A DNA stretch of 64,000 bases, taken from positions 1-64,000 of the forward strand of contig NCSJ02000086.1 in NCBI GenBank assembly GCA_002812745.2, read 5' to 3'. This DNA comes from Scytalidium lignicola (Eukaryota; Ascomycota; Leotiomycetes). This document shows positions 2,809-42,548 of this stretch, in pieces. The notes beneath the pieces are model-generated. The model saw only the letters and a list, made by a program, of their open reading frames with translations, had not been told where the DNA came from and ran no database searches. How positions within the stretch are numbered: position 1 is the first letter of the stretch; each line of letters starts with the position of its first letter. Made by a program: the position numbers and the translations under genes.

Positions 2809-4185
2809 ATGGCTTTCCCCCCTCCACCAGAACCAAAGTCTGCCTTGGGCTACTACCGCATGCTCGCACCTACTGCCTCAGTGCGAGTCAGTCCACTATG
2901 CCTTGGAGCAATGAATTTCGGAGATGCCTGGTATGTGTGCTGTCTCGTGACTTACTTTTGTCCTCGCCCTCTGTTGAAAGAAGCTAATTGGGGTATAGGA
3001 AGGAATTTATGGGCGAATGTAACCAAGAAACTGTGGAATCCATCCTCGATTACTACTACGAAATGGGTGGAAACTTCATTGATACAGCAAACAATTACCA
3101 GGTAGGCCTACTGCTGCCTCCTTTAGATCAATTGTAGTAGCACCTTGCTGATATGTGTCTTAAAAAAGTCCGAAGAATCTGAGAAATGGATTGGCGAATG
3201 GGTGAAGAAACGGGGAATTAGAGATCAGTTGGTTATCGCGACCAAGTTCTCATCATGCTACCGTCGTGACCACATAGATAAAGAGATTACCGTGAATTAT
3301 GGTGGAAACGGAGCAAAGTCTCTTCATATGTCGTTGGCGGCAAGCTTGAAAAAGCTACAGACCGATTACATTGACCTGGTACTTTTTTCCCCATGACATC
3401 TAACGTTTGCATCGAGACTTTTCTAATTTATAATATAGCTCTACGTCCACTGGTGGGACTTCACTTGCTCTATCGAAGAACTCATGCAATCTCTCAACCA
3501 CATGATTGTGGCTGGTAAAGTACTCTATCTAGGTATCTCGGATACTCCCGCATGGGTTGTCTCCAGAGCGAACGAATATGCGAGACAGAATGGTTTACGT
3601 CAATTCTCTGTATATCAAGGCCGATGGTCCGCTGAACACCGTGATTTTGAGCGAGACATCATCCCTATGTGTCGCGCTGAGGGTATGGGGCTGGCACCTT
3701 GGGGAGCGCTTGGTGGAGGGTATTTCAAGACAGAGGAGCAGAGGAAAAATGATTCAGCTAGAAAAATTGGCGAGTTTACTGAAGCCTCCATCAAAATCAG
3801 CAAGGTCCTGGAAAAGATTGCAAACAAGAATAATACTGGCTTAACAAGTGTTGCTCTAGCTTATGTTATGCAGAAGACACCCTACGTCTTTCCAATTATC
3901 GGAGGACGGAAAGTGGATCACCTCAAAGGTAATATTGAGGCCTTGACACTTCAATTGACCGATGAAGATATCAAGGACATTGAAGCTGCTCATCCATTTG
4001 ATATTGGCTTCCCAATGAACTTCTTAGGTGGTCCGAACGGAGTTGAAGGGCCTCAGAGCGTTTGGTTAATGAATATGGCTGGGCAGCAACGACATGTGCA
4101 GTGGCCAAAGGTATGCTAAAGCAGTGAAATTCCGTTTTCAATTATGCTGATTGGTTTTTAGCCTATCCCTGCCCTGAAGAAGTGA
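2809..4185 (+). CDS. Aldo/keto reductase (aryl-alcohol dehydrogenase / norsolorinic reductase type)
   Basis: Five exons fit GT-AG rules and keep frame: 2809-2930, 2999-3101, 3169-3378, 3439-4110 and 4162-4185, about 369 residues. The AKR tetrad is recognisable: Asp and Tyr in FIDTANNYQ, Lys in LVIATKF, His in LYVHWWDF. The C-terminal half has the cofactor-loop sequence [14 protein letters not shown]. Proteins of this clade reduce aldehydes or ketones with NADPH; members occur in aromatic metabolism and in aflatoxin-type clusters. No secondary-metabolite genes are adjacent here, so a general redox role is likelier. The short fifth exon ends PIPALKK. If it is not used, exon 4 runs to a stop at 4119 giving a PKVC tail. 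Confidence 0.9.
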
Positions 4186-18448: not shown

Positions 18449-20194
18449 TCACGATTCTTCTTGAAGACATTCTGAGTTGTCCTCATCTATTTTTACGAAG
18501 GCAGTGGCAATCATAGCAATCAAATATAGTGCCTGAATTTATCTTAGTCCCTAAGCTACGGAAGAAACAAAGGATCTGTAAACTTACCGCAGCGACAAAG
18601 AACGGTAAAGCATGCCAGAAAGGTGTTGCTCGGAGAGTAGCTGCGAAGATCTGCTGCATCGCAGGGTCACCAAGCATATGTCCAATATTTTCAAGAACGG
18701 CTATGGCTGTATAGAAGGTAGCTTTAAAATCTTTAGCTATCCAATGAGTCGCGAGCGCGAGCGCGTGGACCCTGCTTCCAAATCCCCCTGAGAAGACGAA
18801 GACACCTATAAAAGAGTTAGTATAAGTTAAGCATCTAAATGAGGAAAGCTTCACCTAGAGGTAGAAGACGGCCCGATGGAGCCAACCCGATGAGCAGAGA
18901 TCCAATACAAAGTAGGCAAACGCTTATTCTAACATAATTCAGATCGATATTTTGAGATTTAATTTTATATCTACTTTGAATGTAGGCATTTAGTCGAGGC
19001 ATAACTAGTAAAAATAACACCAGATTGATCACGGCCGACTCGGTATAAAAGGTGGCTCCCGCAGATATTTTGAAGCCGAATCGTATAGAAGCATATTGTA
19101 TTAAAATATTAAGAGTCGTATACCTCAAAGTAACTACGAGAAACGTTGGAAGCGTAAGAAGAATATTTCTGTGGAAGAGAATACTCTTAAAACTGTCTAT
19201 TAGGGCAGTTTTAGCTGGTAAACCACTCGTATTAGCTGTATCATTAGCATCGTTACCAGGCTCCGCCTGTGACTCCAAATAATGGCCCGATGACCTTGAA
19301 TCTGGCATAATCCAAAGGAGCAGAAGACATAATAAGAGGGAGACAAGAGCCAAGCCGCACGGAATCCAAGACGAAATATCGGTAGTTGTAGCTGCAACAA
19401 ACGATGCCACAAGCTCGGCAACATAAAATGCAGAAAACACATAATAAAATGCACGACGTCTCCATTCCAATGGTATAGACTCAGATACCATGGCCCACAT
19501 AAATGATACAGCTGAGGGCAGGCCACCTCCGCATAAAATGAAGACGGAGGAGAGCCATACTAACCTCAGAGGCAGCACCTTAGGGAAAGCACCTATATAG
19601 GTATTTTAGTCTTTCAGCCCTAATATGACAGTAAAGAGAGATGGAGATACCTACAAACGACGAAGATCGTAGATAAGGAGAATATGACACCGACGACAGC
19701 TACCGCTAGAGTTTTCCTCAGGCCATATCGATCGCCTAGCTTACCAAAAGGAATTCCAACAAGAATTACTAGTACACGGTGTCAGCAATCCTCCTCCTTG
19801 CAGATCCCAAAGTGACCAAGATAGAGGAAAACAGGAGAATGTAGAGGAGGTAAATCGCACCTGCCAAGGTATCAAAAGTCGATTTCCACCCTCTAATCGT
19901 AGCCAATGGAGCTTGAATCTCCGGAATCTTGCAAAGAGCATCATCTATCTTTCCGCTTGGAAAAGAGTAGTATGTACGGCAGAGAGATTGCTCAAATAGG
20001 TTGATAAAAGGAGCAACGATGACCATCTCGCAGAAACCTAGAAGGAAATGCAGAAGCATGAAATAGATTATGAAGACATGTACAGGTCTGGACCTGTTTT
20101 TACCTGCGGTATCATCATGCTCATCGTCATCTTTTGGATGGGGGTGGATTCCGCCGTTTAGAAGTGGAGTTATGTCATTTTCAGTAACGTCCAT
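18449..20194 (-). CDS. Major facilitator superfamily transporter
   Basis: Five exons (20194-19861, 19768-19655, 19592-18855, 18805-18588, 18532-18449) give 495 residues with about 12 hydrophobic segments. The N-terminal cytosolic tail is acidic and His/Asp-rich. The MFS loop 2-3 signature is recognisable across the second exon (GIPFGKLGDRYGLRKTLAV). Proline- and glycine-rich helices and a mid-protein hydrophilic loop (about residues 230-270) fit the two six-helix bundles. Substrate is unknown; the layout resembles uncharacterised fungal MFS proteins annotated as drug or tetracycline-resistance-like. The gene is convergent with She9, with only 94 bases between stops. An in-frame stop excludes the alternative donor for exon 2. 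Confidence 0.88.
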
Positions 20195-20551
20195 GGTGAT
20201 AATAACCAATAGAGCAGAGACTCAGTGACTCCTCATTCTTTTCATATGCGTTGAGTTTGTGTGTAGATAATAAGACATCAAAACACACCCTCGATAGGCG
20301 GTGGAGAGCGGCATAACTACGTGGGATGTTCGAGGTTACTCTCGGCTACAGATACCCAGGCGTGCTAGCAGACAGCTCGGTCTTGGTCTCCTGAAATATA
20401 CTATCTAGTTCCGGCTAGAGGAGCGTAACATCTCGAATGGGAATTACAGCATTTAAATTTGTCACGTGTAAATTGATACATAAAATTGAATGAACAATTA
20501 CTTTCATAACATCATTTTAAATACAATGTATCCTCGACCATCCAGGTAACT
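20195..20551. other. Intergenic region between MFS gene and secreted-protein gene
   Basis: This is the promoter side of the MFS transporter gene. No gene is supported. Confidence 0.5.
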
Positions 20552-31824: not shown

Positions 31825-34800
31825 ATGAAGTTCCTGTCTCTCCTTCTGATTTCAGCTCTACTTGGGCAAGCTGCAGCGCTTGCTGTAGGTGGTCAGAGAA
31901 TGGTTATTGAAAGAGAAAGTGATGGACTCCAGAGCATAGTAAGTTTCTGAGTGAGCCGATTGCTAATACTAGCAGCCAAATTGTCCTGCCTTAGTAGGTG
32001 AAGTCGACTGAATTGAGAGCAGGTCACCTATGATGAGCACTCTTTGATGGTATATGGTGAGCGTATCTTCGTCTTCAGTGGTGAATTCCACCCGTACCGG
32101 CTTCCTGTGCCAGACCTATGGCTCGACATTTTTCAAAAGGTGAAAGCTTTAGGGTTCAATGCTGTTTCTTTCTATGTACACTGGGCTTTGCTTGAAGGGC
32201 AACCAGGTGTCTACAATGCAAGCGGGGTTTTTGCTTTTGAACCATTCTTTGCTGCAGCACAACAGGCTGGGATTTATCTCATTGCTCGCCCTGGACCTGT
32301 ACGTCTAACTAAGCTGCTATATATGCCCCTATTAACTAGATTAGTATATAAATGCAGAATCAAGTGGTGGTGGGTTTCCTGGATGGCTCCAACGCACCAA
32401 GGGACAGCTCAGAACTCGAGCTCCAGATTACCTGACAGCTACGGATAACTACATTGCTCATATTGGAGCGGCTATTTCCAAAGCACAAATTACAAATGGG
32501 GGTCCAGTTATTCTTGTTCAACCTGAAAATGAATATACACAGGCTGTTTCTGATGTTACAGGAGGCTTCCCTGATCCTGTGTACTTTGCTTATGTGAAGA
32601 AGCAACTGAGAGATACTGGTATCACAGTGCCTTTCATCAGTAACGATGCATGTAAGTTTAAATATGTCATCATTGTACAAGCACCACATTTCTTACCACC
32701 TAATAGCACCCCATGGATACTTCGCTCCGGGATACGTCGTTGATGGTACAACTGAAGGCGACGTTAATATATGTGTGTTCATAGACTCTCGACGACTTCT
32801 CAATGTCATATCTGACAACTAGCTTTAGATGGTCATGATTCATACCCACAGGGTTTCGATTGTGCAAATCCATATACATGGAACCCTGGGTCAATTCCGA
32901 CAACGTTTCATGCTTCGCACGAAGAACAAAGCCCTTCTACTTTCTACTCCATTGATGAATTCCAAGGGGGCTCTTTCGATCCTTGGGGAGGTCCCGTAGG
33001 TTCAAACTAGCGCACAGGCATTATTACTCTGGTGAACGTTATCACTAATTTCAAATAGGGGTTTGAAAATTGTGCTGTTCTCACTAATATGGAGTTCGAG
33101 CGTGTTTTCTATAAGAACGATTTTGCTTCTGGCGTCGCTCTGTTGAATATTTACATGATATGTGAGCTACATTTTTGCATCTGTGTAACTGAATTGTATG
33201 ACTAACATTGATATATCAGATGGGGGAACTAATTGGGGTAATCTTGGACATCCAGGTGACTATACAAGCTACGACTATGGATCATGTATCACTGAAAATC
33301 GAGAGATATATCGAGAGAAGTATAGTGAGCTGAAACTGGAGGCAAATTTCTTAAAAGTTTCGCCAGCCTACCTTACTACTTCCGTAGGTGCTACGGTCAA
33401 CGGAACCTATACGAATACCAATGCAATCACTACTACTCCACTTTGGGGAAATGATAGTGTTACCAATTTCTATGTTATCAGACACTCTGATTACCAGCAA
33501 ACAACGCCAACTTCTTACACTCTAAGTTTAAATACAACAAAAGGCCATATCACCATTCCACAGCTGGGTGGCTCTTTGACGCTGAGTGGTAGAGATTCGA
33601 AGTGGCATGTTACTGACTACGACCTTGGTGGAATCAATATTCTCTATTCCACTGCTGAAATATTCACTTGGAAGAAATTTGATGACAAGACAGTCTTACT
33701 TGTCTATGGTGGTCCTGGAGAACTGCACGAATTAGCAGTTGTTGCTGACAATTCAGCAACAACGGTTGAAGGTAGTGACATCACAATCTCAAGCAAGAAT
33801 GGTGCTGCAGTGCTAAACTGGAAGACGTCCGCTAAACGACGGATTGTCCTAGTTGGAGATCTCTTTGTGTATATTCTAGATCGAAACACTGCATATAACT
33901 ATTGGGTCCCAGACTTCGCCCGCACTGATGAATGGGCCTACTAGTAGGTAATCTGATGGTCTCAGAGTATTTAGATATTGACTTCATATAGTGCTTCTAA
34001 TGTAGAAAATACAACGTCGGTGATTGTCCAAGCGGGCTATCTGGTAAGGTCAGTGTACATCCAAGGCACTGCTCTACATATCACCGGGGATCTTAACGCA
34101 ACCGTCCCTATCAAGGTCATTGGAGCACCATCTAATGCGAAGGATCTTCATTTTAACGGCAATAAGCTACAATTTACCGTAGACAGAATAACTGGGGAAT
34201 GGACATCTAAAATTGAGTACAATGCGCCGCAGTTTTCCTTACCTGATCTCTCAACCCTTGACTGGAAATACATTGATGATCTCCCTGAAATTCAATCATC
34301 TTACGACGATTCCTCGTGGACGATCGCCGATCATAACTCATCAAACAATCCAATAGCTCTACTGACGCCAACATCATTATACGGCTCAGACTATGGCTAC
34401 AACACTGGCGTGCTTATATACAGAGGTCATTTCATAGCAACGGGTGATGAGTCAACTTTTTCCATCACGACACAAGGTGGATCAGCCTACGGATCGAGTG
34501 TTTGGCTCAATAACACATACATAGGGTCATGGCCCGGGATTGATGCCGCCTCCAGTCATAGTGACACTTATACACTCCCAAATCTCAAAGCAGGCTCATC
34601 ATATATTCTTACCGTTGTCATTGACAACAACGGTCTAGATGAAGATTTCACCGTAGGTTCAGACCAGATGAAGAACCCCCGTGGTATCCTCAACTACACA
34701 CTCTCCGGCAGACCTCAATCAGCCATAATCTGGAAGCTTACCGGCAATCTCGGAGGTGAGAACTACATCGACAAAGTCCGAGGACCGCTGAACGAGGGCG

Positions 34801-35417
34801 GCCTCTATGGCGAGCGTCAAGGATTCACGCAACCATATCCGCCAAATCACAATTGGGCTGCGGGTTCTCCCTTTCATGGCATCAGTGCTGCAGGCATAGG
34901 GTTCTTCCAAGCATCCTTTAACCTGGATATGCCTCGCGATTATGATATTCCTCTCACGTTTAACTTTGGGAATACTACAATCAACGGCGCTAGGGCGGAT
35001 TATCGAGCCCAGCTGTGGGTTAATGGATATCAATTTGGGAAATACGTCAATAACATCGGTAAGGCTCATGATGAGACATAATTTAAGTTCAAAAAATGAC
35101 AAAGAGGGTTGTATTGACTTAAGATTAAACAGGTCCTCAATCTAGTTTTCCGGTGCCTCAAGGTATGTGAAAAATAACAAACACTGCACATTGCATCATA
35201 CAAGGTATGTGGGGTTATACAGTACTAACGCCGACCCTCGGTAGGTATTCTTGATTACTGTCATATTCCAATTCAGCCTGTTTTTTCGCGAAAAAGAGCC
35301 CCGTGCACCACTTTTTGGTGCGCGTACCATAGAAAAGTAATGCGTGGGACAGAATCAATCAATTGCTTACCATACAACGCGTTTCTACACTTGTTTTTCG
35401 TGCCATTTTACCGTTAG
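31825..35417 (+). CDS. Secreted beta-galactosidase (GH35), 3' end replaced by transposon
   Basis: Exons 31825-31938, 32023-32298, 32345-32651, 32707-32772, 32829-32995, 33059-33161, 33220-33943, 33992-35058, 35133-35162 and 35245 onward hold frame for 955 codons up to the TA at 35257. The N-terminus is a signal peptide ([20 protein letters not shown]). The GH35 barrel contains [31 protein letters not shown] (acid/base Glu, about 193) and [13 protein letters not shown] (nucleophile Glu, about 298), then [13 protein letters not shown] and the beta domains. It hydrolyses terminal beta-galactosides of plant-wall polysaccharides and lactose. The last exon begins as expected (QGILDY) but runs into the mariner TIR, which adds 53 codons to TAG 35415-35417. 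The normal C-terminal segment is not found beyond the element. Activity of the product is uncertain. Confidence 0.85.
35258..35408 (+). repeat. Left terminal inverted repeat (151 bp)
   Basis: Identical to the reverse complement of 38051-38201. It contains a CGCG-centred palindrome and a GTGC hairpin near the outer end. The accessory ORF's ATG lies 24 bases beyond its inner edge, so the repeat probably includes that gene's promoter. Confidence 0.95.
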
Positions 35418-35431
35418 ATATCGAATGCAAT

Positions 35432-36979
35432 ATGCCACGTCCAAAATCCAAAAAAACGACCAAAAAAGCGCCTTCCAAGAAGTCGAAACAGCTCCCAAAC
35501 CCCTCAACCCCTATTCAACGACCTAGAATTCGACTTATATCTCGAACTCCTGCTCCAACAGAACAATTACCGTCTTCTGTAGTTGTTACATCTCCAGAGG
35601 CTCTAGCTGAACGTTCATCAAGTGTTTTGCCGTCCTTTTCGCACCCCAATTCGCCCTCCGATTCGACTAATACACAACGACCGGCTAGAACATCTTTACC
35701 TTCAGCACCTTTACCTGAACGCAATATAGAGTTCCAAATAAAGGTATATTTCGAAGGAAAGATCACCACATCTTACGCATATATGGTCAATCTGAACGAC
35801 CCTCACCGTCTTCAATATGAATCGATTGTTGCAGAAGGAAGGGAGTTTGTAGTTGACTATACAATGCGTAGACATATACAAGGGGTTCTAAGAGGTGGAG
35901 ATACGTTAGTATGCAGTTATGGTGCTGAGAGGAAACCTATCGTATCTGAAATACACCATAATGATCGATGGCAACATCTTGAAAAGATATTCAAGAACAA
36001 AGCCGCCAAAAAGGGGGAGATTCTTCGAATTGACATCAAATATGCCATCAATTTCGACCCATATGACGAATTACCTCCTGAAATAACACACAAGCCTGCT
36101 CCGAAACGTGTATTTTCAGCTCCAATAGACGAAAATGCACCTGAACAAGAAGATATCGAACAAGAACCAATACCTAAAAAACGGCGGTCAGCGACAAATA
36201 TTCAACTTGATGAACTACAACAAAAGATACGGAAGAACCTAGAATATGGTACAGGGCTTACTTTATTCGATTTTCATCGATGTGACGATTTTTCTTGTCA
36301 TAATTTCGAAAAACTATGCTATAACACGATCGATAAAGATTACAATACTCTCCATCTTGCTGTCGACGGCAAAATAGCTAAAGAATGGGCGGCTGAAATC
36401 CACAAAGGCAGAGCAACTCTCGAAAGACCTTCTGCGAAGGTAATTGCTATGATAACGGCTTATAACAAGCAATATAAGCAAAGGAAGGATGTCAAAAAGG
36501 GGTTGAATTCAGAGGTTTCGTCAATTATAGCAGCAACTCCGGGTAATCACATTATATACAATTTCAGTAATAATGGCATGCCTTATAACATTCCAGTGAT
36601 AGAATCACGATATACAATACCTACATTCTCGAATCAATCAACAGCCCAAAATCAAAATAGGCCATCTAGCAAGGAATCCGCTCGCCCATCAAGTCCACTT
36701 CAACCAACTGTCAGCAACGAAAAATTAATCTTATCTTTCCAAACATACGTACATGCTGAAATGCCACAATATATGCAAGATACAAAGCTTGGGAAGGTGT
36801 TTGAGATCTTATTAGCTCAAGATATTTCTCCTATGCGGTTGAATGAGTTGGAAGACGATAAAATCAAGTTGTTTTCACTACCATGGGGAAAGGTTATGGA
36901 TATGAAACCATATATTTCAAGATGGAAAAAAGCATATAAACAAGAAATTTCAATTGATTTTGTAGATATTAGTGATTAA
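35432..36979 (+). CDS. Transposon accessory protein of unknown function
   Basis: One uninterrupted frame of 515 residues. ATG 35432 was chosen because the frame upstream is TIR sequence without ATG. The N-terminus is strongly basic (MPRPKSKKTTKKAPSKKSKQ), a likely nuclear-localisation or DNA-contacting tail, followed by a Pro/Ser/Thr-rich disordered segment to about residue 110. A folded region (about 115-220) contains IEFQIKVYFEGKITTSYAYM and RIDIKYAINFDP, suggestive of beta strands. Near 280-300 is a Cys/His segment (HRCDDFSCHNFEKLCY, then a His) that might bind zinc. The C-terminus (about 430-507) is helical and looks SAM-like (LGKVFEILLAQDISPMRLNE). It has no DDE or integrase motif. Its intactness inside a TIR-bounded element suggests a role in transposition or regulation; this is inference. 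Confidence 0.85.
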   Translation: MPRPKSKKTTKKAPSKKSKQLPNPSTPIQRPRIRLISRTPAPTEQLPSSVVVTSPEALAERSSSVLPSFSHPNSPSDSTNTQRPARTSLPSAPLPERNIEFQIKVYFEGKITTSYAYMVNLNDPHRLQYESIVAEGREFVVDYTMRRHIQGVLRGGDTLVCSYGAERKPIVSEIHHNDRWQHLEKIFKNKAAKKGEILRIDIKYAINFDPYDELPPEITHKPAPKRVFSAPIDENAPEQEDIEQEPIPKKRRSATNIQLDELQQKIRKNLEYGTGLTLFDFHRCDDFSCHNFEKLCYNTIDKDYNTLHLAVDGKIAKEWAAEIHKGRATLERPSAKVIAMITAYNKQYKQRKDVKKGLNSEVSSIIAATPGNHIIYNFSNNGMPYNIPVIESRYTIPTFSNQSTAQNQNRPSSKESARPSSPLQPTVSNEKLILSFQTYVHAEMPQYMQDTKLGKVFEILLAQDISPMRLNELEDDKIKLFSLPWGKVMDMKPYISRWKKAYKQEISIDFVDISD

Positions 36980-36993
36980 CCAATAATATTATA

Positions 36994-37992
36994 TTATTCT
37001 TCTTCAGCTCCTTGATAGCCAGCATGGCGAAAGTGGCTATGAGCGTTCTTAACAGCCCTTGGACTGTTATATCTCCCAACTTCGTCAATACCCATATGTA
37101 ACATATCCTCGAATTCTGCAATGGTAGAACGATGGGAATTACAGTGTCGATGAAGCCATTTCTTCAGATCACTAAAACTCTCTTCGATTGGGTTTAAAAA
37201 GGGGCAATATGGTGGTAAAAATCTAAGTAAAACTCCCTTTTCATCACACATAGCTTGGAGTTGTTGTTTTCGATGAATTCTACAATTATCCATGATTAAT
37301 ACTGACTTTTCGTATGGCCAGGGATTACACAGTGGTAATACATCTGTAGCAATCCAATTTTCGAATACCTCCGCTGTTATGCTCCCTTGTAAAGTGATGG
37401 CGGAAATATACCCCTTTACTGTATATGCTGGCAATATCGACCACTTCTCCGACCGTTTCAACCACTTCTTCTTCTTTGCTGGTATTCCTATGGGCGCCCA
37501 TCCATATTTCCGGTCTCCTGTACGTTCGTTGCTTGCAGATTCATCTACAAATATAAGTTGATCAGCCGTAAAGTTCGCAGATTCAATATACCAGTTATCG
37601 ATGAGAAGTTGATTTCGTTGAGCGGCAACATATTCAAGCTTTTTATGGGTAATATTCAGCTTCTTTAAAAGCTTCGAAATCGCTGATTGGCTAAGCTTTA
37701 TGTCGAATTCGTCGTATATAAAGTCTGCAACTTCATCTTGATATAAATCATTTGACGTATATATAACCTCTTTCACCGCTTGTTCGATATCTGGTGTTAT
37801 TACTGAAGAACGACCAGCTTTTCCTCTCAAATTTACCCCAATTGTTCTGTCGGTTTTTAGCTTTCGAGCAATATATCGAACAGTTTCGTAGGAGACGTCA
37901 AAAGCGGTAGCAATTGCGTATTTATCGTCGTCGGTATTCAGGAGAGCACATTCGATGGCTTTCACGGTCTCTGGAACAAGCCTAGGCGCCAT
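36994..37992 (-). CDS. Tc1/mariner DD34E transposase
   Basis: ATG 37992 gives 332 residues; the frame stays open upstream into the TIR but only with non-ATG codons. The N-terminal third holds two helix-turn-helix units (KYAIATAFDVSYETVRYIAR and LSQSAISKLLKKLNI) that in this superfamily bind the TIR. The DDE_3 catalytic domain has Asp in FVDESASNE (about 147), Asp in IMDNCRIH (about 233) and Glu in NPIEESFSDLK (about 269), with 34 residues between the last two. The enzyme performs cut-and-paste transposition into TA. All catalytic residues are present and there are no stops, so it could be active. The stop faces that of the accessory gene 14 bases away. Confidence 0.95.
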   Translation of the reverse strand: MAPRLVPETVKAIECALLNTDDDKYAIATAFDVSYETVRYIARKLKTDRTIGVNLRGKAGRSSVITPDIEQAVKEVIYTSNDLYQDEVADFIYDEFDIKLSQSAISKLLKKLNITHKKLEYVAAQRNQLLIDNWYIESANFTADQLIFVDESASNERTGDRKYGWAPIGIPAKKKKWLKRSEKWSILPAYTVKGYISAITLQGSITAEVFENWIATDVLPLCNPWPYEKSVLIMDNCRIHRKQQLQAMCDEKGVLLRFLPPYCPFLNPIEESFSDLKKWLHRHCNSHRSTIAEFEDMLHMGIDEVGRYNSPRAVKNAHSHFRHAGYQGAEEE

Positions 37993-38050
37993 AAAAGAGT
38001 TGTATATGCTGAAAAAGTTGATATTATGATGGGAATTGTAACATATGAGC

Positions 38051-38201
38051 AAATGGCACGAAAAACAAGTGTAGAAACGCGTTGTATGGTAAGCAATTGA
38101 TTGATTCTGTCCCACGCATTACTTTTCTATGGTACGCGCACCAAAAAGTGGTGCACGGGGCTCTTTTTCGCGAAAAAACAGGCTGAATTGGAATATGACA
38201 G
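38051..38201 (-). repeat. Right terminal inverted repeat (151 bp)
   Basis: Mirror of the left repeat with no mismatch seen. The transposase ATG lies 58 bases inside its inner edge. Its outer end is 185 bases upstream of the ribosomal S18 start codon. Confidence 0.95.
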
Positions 38202-38386
38202 TAACAGGCTTAATAGATAACTTAGGTTAGGACAGTACGTAAGTAAATTGGCGATATGTCAGACGTTATGTAATAAGCGAGATTTTACCCTAGTGCAGCG
38301 CGCACACTTGCAATTCTTCGAAACGACCGATTACTTCTTCGAAAGTTCAACGACAAGAAAGCGACAACACATCAACGTCGCCCATC

Positions 38387-39295: not shown

Positions 39296-40213
39296 TCAAT
39301 CCTCATGTGTGACTGCCATATCTAAGACCTCAACTCTTCCTTGTCCTTTAGTCTCGCCGCCAATAAAGTCACCGAGTCCTTTAAAAGCACCTGGCTCAAC
39401 GAAGCCTACGACTTCCCATTCTGAACCCGTAACATCTTGAGTCTCCACTTGTTCTATGTAGCTCAAAATACGGTCCTTAACTGACATTTTGATCTTTTCT
39501 TCTCCTTCACCCTCTACGCCGCCCACCTTTGGTCCGGCAGCCTTGGTGGACTGCTTCAGAATCGAAGTCGGACAGGTAATACGTAATCTCATCCTGGCTC
39601 TTGCAACTGGAATAGGTTGATGAGCGATCAATGCTTTCATGGCTTCTAGAGCTTGGCTTTTTGCACTCTTCGTTGTTGTCACGCCTGTCCAAATATGTTC
39701 CTTCACTTTAGGCTTTGCTTCGCCTTCTTCTCCTACTTCTGGTGCTCCATTTGCGGTACTGGAGACAGTCTTCTCGTGTGCCTGGGAACTGAGCATATCT
39801 AAGGCCTTCTCGATCATCCCCGTCGTATACACCCGCTTTGTCTTAGGATCAACTAACTTGCTAGCCACGAAGCTGACAACTTCATTGTGAACTCTTTCCA
39901 ACTGTGCGGCCCGCTCTTTCTCACCGACTTGTATCTCCCCTTTGTTCAGGATCTCCAGGATAATATCGTTAACTGATGCTTTGGGCCCGAAGCATTTTGC
40001 TAAATCGGACGAAGGAGCAGTCTGACCTTTTGAGACGTTGAGGAAGACATTAGGGATTTGCAGGACGTTGTCCAAGTCCGTCTCGATCCCGTTGCGCCAC
40101 TCAAGGACTTTGTTCTTGTAGCAGGCGATCTCAAATCGTTTCTTAGCCTTCTTCAGTCGGACGAGGGAGACGTTTGTGAGCTTTATTTGATTTGATGGCT
40201 GATTAATAGGCAT
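39296..40213 (-). CDS. sdo1: Ribosome maturation protein SDO1 (SBDS homologue)
   Basis: A single exon of 305 residues. The N-terminal SBDS domain is clear: QIKLTNVSLVRLKKAKKRFE, ACYKNKVLEWRNG, LDNVLQIPNVFLNVSKGQ, then DDIILEILNKGEIQVGEKER-like sequence. The middle helical domain contains RRVYTTGMIEKAL-like sequence and IAHQPIPVARARMRLRI, followed by the C-terminal ferredoxin-like domain. SDO1 with the GTPase Efl1 releases eIF6/Tif6 from 60S subunits. The protein exceeds yeast Sdo1 (about 250 residues) because of two Glu/Gly/Lys-rich linkers (about 150-175 and 230-245). ATG 40213 begins the conserved MPINQPSNQIKLTNVS. Confidence 0.95.
   Translation of the reverse strand: MPINQPSNQIKLTNVSLVRLKKAKKRFEIACYKNKVLEWRNGIETDLDNVLQIPNVFLNVSKGQTAPSSDLAKCFGPKASVNDIILEILNKGEIQVGEKERAAQLERVHNEVVSFVASKLVDPKTKRVYTTGMIEKALDMLSSQAHEKTVSSTANGAPEVGEEGEAKPKVKEHIWTGVTTTKSAKSQALEAMKALIAHQPIPVARARMRLRITCPTSILKQSTKAAGPKVGGVEGEGEEKIKMSVKDRILSYIEQVETQDVTGSEWEVVGFVEPGAFKGLGDFIGGETKGQGRVEVLDMAVTHED

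Positions 40214-40761: not shown

Positions 40762-42548
<1,787 letters not shown>

What the first reader, a model, noticed from the sequence alone, without database searches (positions are those of the whole stretch)
35258..38201. Tc1/mariner-type element with a second, conserved-looking gene convergent to its transposase
Most Tc1/mariner elements carry only a transposase gene. Here a TA-flanked element with perfect 151-bp TIRs also has an intact 515-codon ORF on the opposite strand. It is not transposase-like and is larger than the transposase. The genes converge with 14 bases between stops, and each starts within 60 bases of a TIR. This implies selection on both products and suggests a two-component transposition system or a co-transposing regulator.
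Basis: partly seen in the sequence, partly recalled or inferred. Interest (0 to 1): 0.9.

Follow-up and report, generated by a model that had tools for sequence, protein, structure and literature searches.

The report
Two-gene IS630/mariner transposon family
This jumping DNA element carries, besides the usual cutting enzyme, a second conserved gene of unknown kind, and every complete relative of it that was read in this genome carries the same pair, which suggests that the second gene is a working part of the element.

Summary
A 2,944-bp element (35258-38201) has identical 151-bp TIRs flanked by TA, an intact IS630/DDE_3 (DD34E) transposase and a convergent intact 515-codon ORF (ACC), with 14 bases between the stops. 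The host genome holds at least three subfamilies (A, B, C). All 15 complete TIR-to-TIR copies that I read (5 A, 9 B, 1 C) carry both genes, convergent. At 19 of 19 B places that keep the transposase's 3' edge, the ACC side adjoins it. Between subfamilies ACC keeps 36-39% amino-acid identity (neutral control 16-23%), less than the transposase (55-63%). Within A, 3,166 of 3,226 differences are RIP-type C>T/G>A, so dN/dS there is uninformative; the window copy is the only one found with both frames open. Outside the family only two unread open frames on contig C255 resemble ACC, over its last ~100 residues. A one-off passenger is unlikely; ACC looks like an inherited component. What it does (TIR-binding cofactor, regulator, anti-silencing factor) is inferred. 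Ciliates have multi-gene Tc1/mariner elements (TBE, Tec); my paper searches found no fungal case.

The parts
35256..35257 (.). left TA target-site duplication
35258..35408 (+). left terminal inverted repeat, 151 bp, identical to the right one; presumably holds the ACC promoter
   Evidence: 100% complementary; promoter role is inference from position
35296..35332 (+). inner TIR block GAGCCCCGTGCACCACTTTTTGGTGCGCGTACCATAG, largely kept in subfamilies A, B and C; candidate protein-binding site
   Evidence: alignment of six ends, one element per subfamily; binding is inference
35432..36979 (+). ACC: accessory ORF, 515 aa, basic N-terminus, no known domain
   Evidence: no significant family match
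36707..36952 (+). ACC C-terminal part (residues 426-507), predicted all-helical; resembles SAM domains only weakly
   Evidence: not significant; related open frames on C255
36980..36993 (.). 14 bases between the two stop codons of the convergent genes
36994..37992 (-). transposase, 332 aa, IS630/DDE_3, DD34E, with HTH_33
38051..38201 (-). right terminal inverted repeat, 151 bp; presumably holds the transposase promoter
   Evidence: promoter role is inference
38127..38163 (-). inner TIR block, right copy
   Evidence: mirror of 35296-35332
38202..38203 (.). right TA target-site duplication

Best explanation
The element is the only copy found with both frames open of a two-gene family of the IS630-Tc1-mariner group, in what is probably a fungus with RIP. 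The 332-aa DD34E transposase would cut and paste the element at TA. The second gene (ACC) is an inherited component that has travelled with the transposase since before subfamilies A, B and C split. Most likely mechanism: ACC is a nuclear, DNA- or protein-binding cofactor of the transposase. It would assemble on the long TIRs, plausibly on the conserved inner block at 39-75 bases from each end, with a C-terminal helical domain that helps to pair the two ends or raise transposase activity. Identical TIRs would give both genes the same promoter. Shown: anatomy, family, constant pairing in the copies read, protein-level constraint. Inferred: nuclear location, DNA binding, end pairing, shared promoter, activity. 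I put about 0.85 on 'conserved working component of the element' and the figure below on the cofactor mechanism.
For: Both genes in 15 of 15 complete elements read, convergent; the first ACC match begins at base 174-176 in 11 of the 15 (window, 9 B, 1 C) and at 193-224 in the other four A copies, whose first residues do not match. Junction kept at 19 of 19 B places with the transposase 3' edge. ACC identity A-B 0.386, A-C 0.372, B-C 0.363, against 0.157-0.230 in 25 neutral realigned simulations. Transversions at codon position 2 over position 3: 0.72, 0.66, 0.68 against 0.78-0.99 in the same simulations. The A, B and C transposases form one clade, support 1.0, in a tree of 86 sequences, so with homologous ACC in all three a single origin before their split is the simplest account. 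The inner TIR block differs from A by 1 to 5 of 37 bases in the other ends aligned. A conserved basic N-terminus fits a nuclear DNA-binding protein.
Against: No DNA-binding domain was recognised in ACC; the weak Pfam rows were DUF6319 (E 0.98) and, in one of three members, PIN_12 (E 0.034). The folds were poor (pLDDT 34.7 for the whole; 64.2 for the C-terminal piece). ACC is less constrained than the transposase (position-2/3 ratio 0.66-0.72 against 0.40-0.52); the bootstrap intervals of its ratio (0.54-0.88 over three pairs) overlap the lower end of the neutral range, and in the best-aligned blocks the A-B ratio is 0.75. Fourfold-site transversions are higher in ACC (28/69, 23/69, 25/55) than in the transposase (18/74, 17/70, 24/64), so equal age of the two genes is not neatly shown, though in the best-aligned blocks the difference is no longer consistent. 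The inner TIR block may be the transposase's own site or a promoter. Nothing was tested at the bench.
Confidence: 0.5

Rival explanations
1. ACC is a regulator or anti-silencing factor of the element: it controls transposase expression or copy number, or counters host silencing (RIP, heterochromatin, small RNA from the convergent overlap), without taking part in DNA cutting and joining.
For: ACC evolves faster than its transposase partner, as expected of a factor facing the host. Copies are heavily damaged by C>T/G>A changes, so pressure to evade is real. Very closely spaced convergent genes could produce antisense overlap (inference).
Against: All 14 other A-like copies aligned carry RIP-type changes, so it does not protect copies durably. 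No domain of a chromatin or RNA factor was found at a significant level.
Confidence: 0.3
2. ACC is a passenger: a gene caught once by the ancestor of A, B and C and carried along, neutral for transposition or useful to the host.
For: Two open frames on C255 resemble the ACC C-terminal ~100 residues outside any detected element, so a cellular source for part of it is possible. DDE_3 transposases without a detected ACC exist in the same genome (for example C646), so ACC is not needed by all relatives.
Against: A neutral passenger should be lost or deleted in some lineages: none of the 15 complete elements read lacks it, and no short TIR-to-TIR derivative appeared in the loci scanned (arms 250-5,000 bases apart, two best pairs per locus). 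The reading frame stayed constrained between subfamilies.
Confidence: 0.15
3. Not a functional second gene: a chance or decaying ORF in an otherwise ordinary element.
For: Of 53 places matched by ACC, 50 hold stops; the open ones are the window and the two C255 pieces.
Against: The transposase copies decay in the same way (66 of 72 places with stops) and by RIP-type changes. The frame, its start and its identity are kept in three diverged subfamilies.
Confidence: 0.03

Closest known systems
IS630-Tc1-mariner group, IS630/DDE_3 branch (relatives in fungi, e.g. a Sclerotinia borealis transposase, P0019, 39% identity)
   Same: TA duplication, TIRs, DD34E catalytic core, DDE_3 and helix-turn-helix domains; P0019 itself has spacing 36
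   Different: usual members carry one ORF (stated for Tc1-Mariner in PMC4188875, passage seen); this family carries a second, larger, convergent gene in all complete copies read
TBE elements of Oxytricha (Tc1/mariner, three ORFs; PMC4724952, passages seen)
   Same: Tc1/mariner-type DDE transposase plus extra ORFs under purifying selection, one of them reverse to the others
   Different: two extra ORFs (22 kD unknown; 57 kD zinc finger/kinase), ciliate germline, telomere-like repeats in the TIRs; ACC was not compared with those proteins by sequence
Tec elements of Euplotes (PMC7325037, passages seen)
   Same: long TIRs, several ORFs, one on the opposite strand
   Different: about 700-bp TIRs, a site-specific recombinase as second ORF; ACC matches no recombinase family
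PIF/Harbinger two-gene elements (transposase plus Myb-like protein; recalled, not read here)
   Same: works-like model: a DNA-binding partner encoded beside a DDE transposase
   Different: TA duplication and IS630/DDE_3 transposase here; no Myb-like match found in ACC
Kolobok lineages with accessory proteins such as KolX (PMC9587614, passages seen)
   Same: DDE transposon lineages marked by distinct accessory proteins
   Different: another superfamily; the accessory proteins named there are nucleases, RecQ helicase or KolX; ACC was not compared with KolX

Membership tests
IS630-Tc1-mariner group | TA target-site duplication | tested here: met
   script found TA at both ends in 14 of 15; in C643 the right-end pattern failed through a G>A change, and its printed end still reads TA
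IS630-Tc1-mariner group | terminal inverted repeats | tested here: met
   (151 bp identical)
IS630-Tc1-mariner group | DDE transposase with 34 residues between second D and E | tested here: met
   spacing 34 in the window protein; in the B and C copies the motif did not match the pattern and the printed frames read K at that place, as RIP would give
IS630-Tc1-mariner group | family-level match of the transposase | tested here: met
   NF033545 IS630 141.9 bits, cut-off 100; DDE_3 98.4 bits, cut-off 28.6
canonical single-gene Tc1/mariner element | transposase is the only gene | tested here: not met
   second gene in 15 of 15 complete elements read
TBE/Tec multi-ORF Tc1/mariner elements | homologous accessory ORFs | not tested
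   their protein sequences were not fetched; ACC has no recombinase, zinc-finger or kinase match at Pfam
PIF/Harbinger | 3-bp TWA duplication and Harbinger-type transposase (features recalled) | tested here: not met
   TA duplication; Pfam hits of the transposase are DDE_3, HTH_33, DDE_1 and weak rows, none of Harbinger type
PIF/Harbinger | Myb/SANT-like second protein (recalled) | tested here: inconclusive
   no such match at Pfam up to E 10; no usable fold
SAM-domain proteins (ACC C-terminal part) | significant SAM match | tested here: inconclusive

The most novel reading that the evidence does not exclude
A fungal branch of the IS630-Tc1-mariner group has become an obligate two-protein transposition system: the second protein, a family with no known relative, binds the conserved inner TIR block and is required with the transposase for end pairing or targeting, in a group long taken to need one protein only.
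Probability: 0.35. Interest if true: 0.8.

Novelty: new variant of a known kind. Interest (0 to 1): 0.62.

Why it matters
Tc1/mariner-type transposons are the textbook case of a self-sufficient one-protein mobile element and are used as genetic tools for that reason (general knowledge). A branch that has kept a second protein through the divergence of three subfamilies would give a direct way to ask what a partner adds to an IS630/mariner transposase (end pairing, control, host evasion), and the open window copy makes that testable in laboratory yeast.

Tried and rejected
Within-family dN/dS was given up: 14 A-like copies differ from the window at 3,226 aligned sites in all, of which 3,166 are C>T or G>A. 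Not put into that alignment, as too short or too diverged: C221, C154, C429, C129, C107. ACC homologue searches in about 5.8 billion proteins returned only itself, with the single protein and with a three-row alignment (where only the 7,992 candidates sharing most words were scored). These searches need shared 5-residue words, and the low-complexity N-terminus may have fed useless candidates, so distant fungal relatives may have been missed. Viral contigs, bacterial and archaeal genomes, plasmids and PDB sequences gave no ACC relative; viral contigs gave no transposase relative (close relatives only).

Structure: whole ACC folded alone is unusable (pLDDT 34.7); the C-terminal piece (64.2) gives only non-significant SAM-like rows, with an unrelated enzyme on top. 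By eye residues 97-210 look like a beta-grasp domain; no call supports this and I make no claim on it.

Transposase places without an ACC protein match (C183, C663, and C399) turned out to be B elements keeping a remnant or a broken ACC. C646 (36% identity, 1 TAG) shows no ACC match and may be an ACC-free relative; it was not read.

Paper searches for a fungal Tc1/mariner element with a second gene: (and 44 for Ant1/Vader). None gave such a case in the listings or in the passages seen; no paper was read whole. The library holds open-licence papers only, so this is not proof of absence.
Full report
Observation. The element is present as described. Between TA duplications at 35256-35257 and 38202-38203 lies a 2,944-bp element whose 151-bp TIRs are identical. 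The plus-strand ORF (ACC) runs 35432-36979 (515 aa) and the minus-strand ORF 37992-36994 (332 aa); 14 bases part their stops. The starts are 23 and 58 bases inside the TIRs.

The transposase. Pfam gives DDE_3 (98.4 bits, cut-off 28.6) and HTH_33 (32.4, cut-off 25); NCBIfam gives the IS630 family (141.9 bits, cut-off 100). The spacing of the second D and the E is 34. It is thus a member of the IS630-Tc1-mariner group, nearer to the IS630/DDE_3 models than the word mariner suggests. In about 5.8 billion proteins 550 matched at E up to 0.001; of the 120 rows listed, nine name an organism and all nine are fungi.

The family in this genome. The genome (46.85 Mb, 664 contigs) gave 40 scored matches to the left end, a lower bound. 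Searches with a B end and a C end support three subfamilies: A (window), B (for example C271, C320, C458) and C (C137). I fetched 33 regions and further loci. Fifteen elements could be read from TIR to TIR: five A (window, C651, C655, C189, C242), nine B (C643, C320, C287, C271, C47, C310, C130, C458, C206) and one C (C137). All 15 carry both genes, convergent; the first ACC match begins at base 174-176 in 11 of 15 and at 193-224 in the other four, all A copies whose first residues do not match. Lengths are 2,922-3,134 bp. The other fetched elements look truncated, interrupted or cut by contig ends. Within B, the transposase 3' edge (query base 10 or lower) was matched at 19 places, the C137 place being left out as subfamily C; at all 19 the ACC-side query, which runs 47 bases past the last ACC match of its source, adjoins it within 4 bases. 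The adjoining stretch is short in C663 (about 106 bases) and C183 (about 223).

State of the copies. Of 53 places matched by ACC, 50 hold stops; the three without are the window and two pieces on C255. Of 72 transposase places 66 hold stops; the others are the window and five fragments of at most 100 residues. Against the window, 14 A-like copies show 61 to 405 differences each, 3,226 in all, of which 3,166 are C>T or G>A and 60 are not. The rate per C is 0.36 before A, 0.40 before G and about 0.20 before C or T. This is what repeat-induced point mutation (RIP) would leave, with CpG decay perhaps added. Subfamily A therefore looks like one recent burst, and the window copy the one that escaped mutation. 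Its intact frames alone do not prove selection, and dN/dS inside A says nothing.

Selection on ACC. I used one little-damaged B copy (C271, five stops in ACC) and the C copy (C137, four stops) against the window. ACC identity is 0.386 (A-B), 0.372 (A-C) and 0.363 (B-C); transposase identity is 0.628, 0.604 and 0.547. RIP makes transitions only, so I counted transversions: position 2 over position 3 is 0.72, 0.66 and 0.68 for ACC (bootstrap 0.54-0.88 over the three pairs) and 0.40-0.52 for the transposase. Neutral evolution of the window ACC to a divergence of 0.58, realigned in the same way, gave identity 0.157-0.230, ratio 0.78-0.99 and 22.9 stops on average in 25 runs; divergence and transversion share of that control were set by me. 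The bootstrap intervals overlap the low end of that neutral range, so identity is the stronger of the two measures. In well-aligned blocks the ACC ratios are 0.75, 0.56 and 0.60, so the A-B block value taken alone is not decisive. Fourfold-site transversions are 28/69, 23/69 and 25/55 in ACC and 18/74, 17/70 and 24/64 in the transposase; in blocks 10/24, 7/29, 9/27 and 18/71, 16/63, 23/61. ACC thus looks somewhat more diverged even at silent sites, which the sample is too small to settle. Overall ACC has been constrained as a protein, less tightly than the transposase. The three transposases form one clade with support 1.0 in a tree of 86 sequences (83 of the database hits, those of 300-360 residues, and the three), so the pairing is most simply older than the split of A, B and C.

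What ACC is. Conserved parts are a basic N-terminus, a block around residues 98-228, a middle block with conserved His, Arg and Cys, and a C-terminal block. No significant family in Pfam or NCBIfam (weak rows only: DUF6319 E 0.98, and PIN_12 E 0.034 in one of three members), no solved structure and no other protein matched. The C-terminal 82 residues are predicted all-helical, and SAM domains appear among the weak structural rows, none significant. Two open frames on C255 resemble this C-terminal part (best E 3.4e-8, 0.004, 1.8e-8), with no middle-block match there, no DDE_3 match on that contig and no TIR match on it among the scored places. They may be cellular genes that share a domain, and they are the main loose end.

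The ends. Aligned, six ends (one element per subfamily) share an outer TACTGTCATAT-like stretch and an inner block, GAGCCCCGTGCACCACTTTTTGGTGCGCGTACCATAG in A, from which the other ends differ by 1 to 5 of 37 bases; the remaining TIR differs more. From the TA, the two ends are identical for 153 bases in A; in the B element exact identity ends at 71 and in C at 23, where an N is read. Two conserved blocks per end allow two binding sites, for one protein or for two.

Reading. The best account is a transposon whose second gene is an inherited component. I favour a transposase cofactor acting on the TIRs, with regulator or anti-silencing factor as the main rival and passenger as a weaker one. The host being a fungus is inferred from the RIP-type pattern and from fungal relatives of the transposase; its class was not tested.

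Known kinds. Multi-ORF Tc1/mariner elements are known in ciliates: TBE, with purifying selection on all three ORFs (PMC4724952, passages), and Tec (PMC7325037, passages). Accessory proteins mark lineages of Kolobok (PMC9587614, passages). For fungi my paper searches found no such Tc1/mariner element, in open-licence papers only. Hence: new variant of a known kind.

Noticed in passing
G000 C255:18358-18765 and 20023-20313 (minus strand): two open frames without stops (165 and 308 codons) resembling the last ~100 residues of ACC, on a contig without a DDE_3 or scored TIR match; could be cellular relatives or another element
   Followed up: partly
G000 C646:14966-15820: nearly intact DDE_3 transposase, 36% identical to the window's, one TAG, with no ACC match on the contig; possible ACC-free sister element
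   Followed up: no
G000 C399:55254-59790: B element whose ACC appears split by about 1.9 kb of other DNA, probably a nested insertion
   Followed up: no
window 33198-35081: beta-galactosidase-type gene (GH35 and BetaGal domains over two ORFs); the transposon lies about 176 bases beyond its last ORF
   Followed up: partly
window 39296-40213 and 40762-41244: an SBDS ribosome-maturation gene (minus strand) and an ORF with a carboxypeptidase Y propeptide domain follow the element
   Followed up: partly
A-like copies: C>T changes are frequent before both A and G (0.36 and 0.40 per C) and about half as frequent before C or T: RIP-like damage not limited to CpA
   Followed up: partly
fetched loci L009-L041 and L055: no short internally deleted (MITE-like) derivative with the A or B TIR at both ends was seen (arms 250-5,000 bases apart, two best pairs per locus), perhaps unusual for a Tc1/mariner family
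   Followed up: partly
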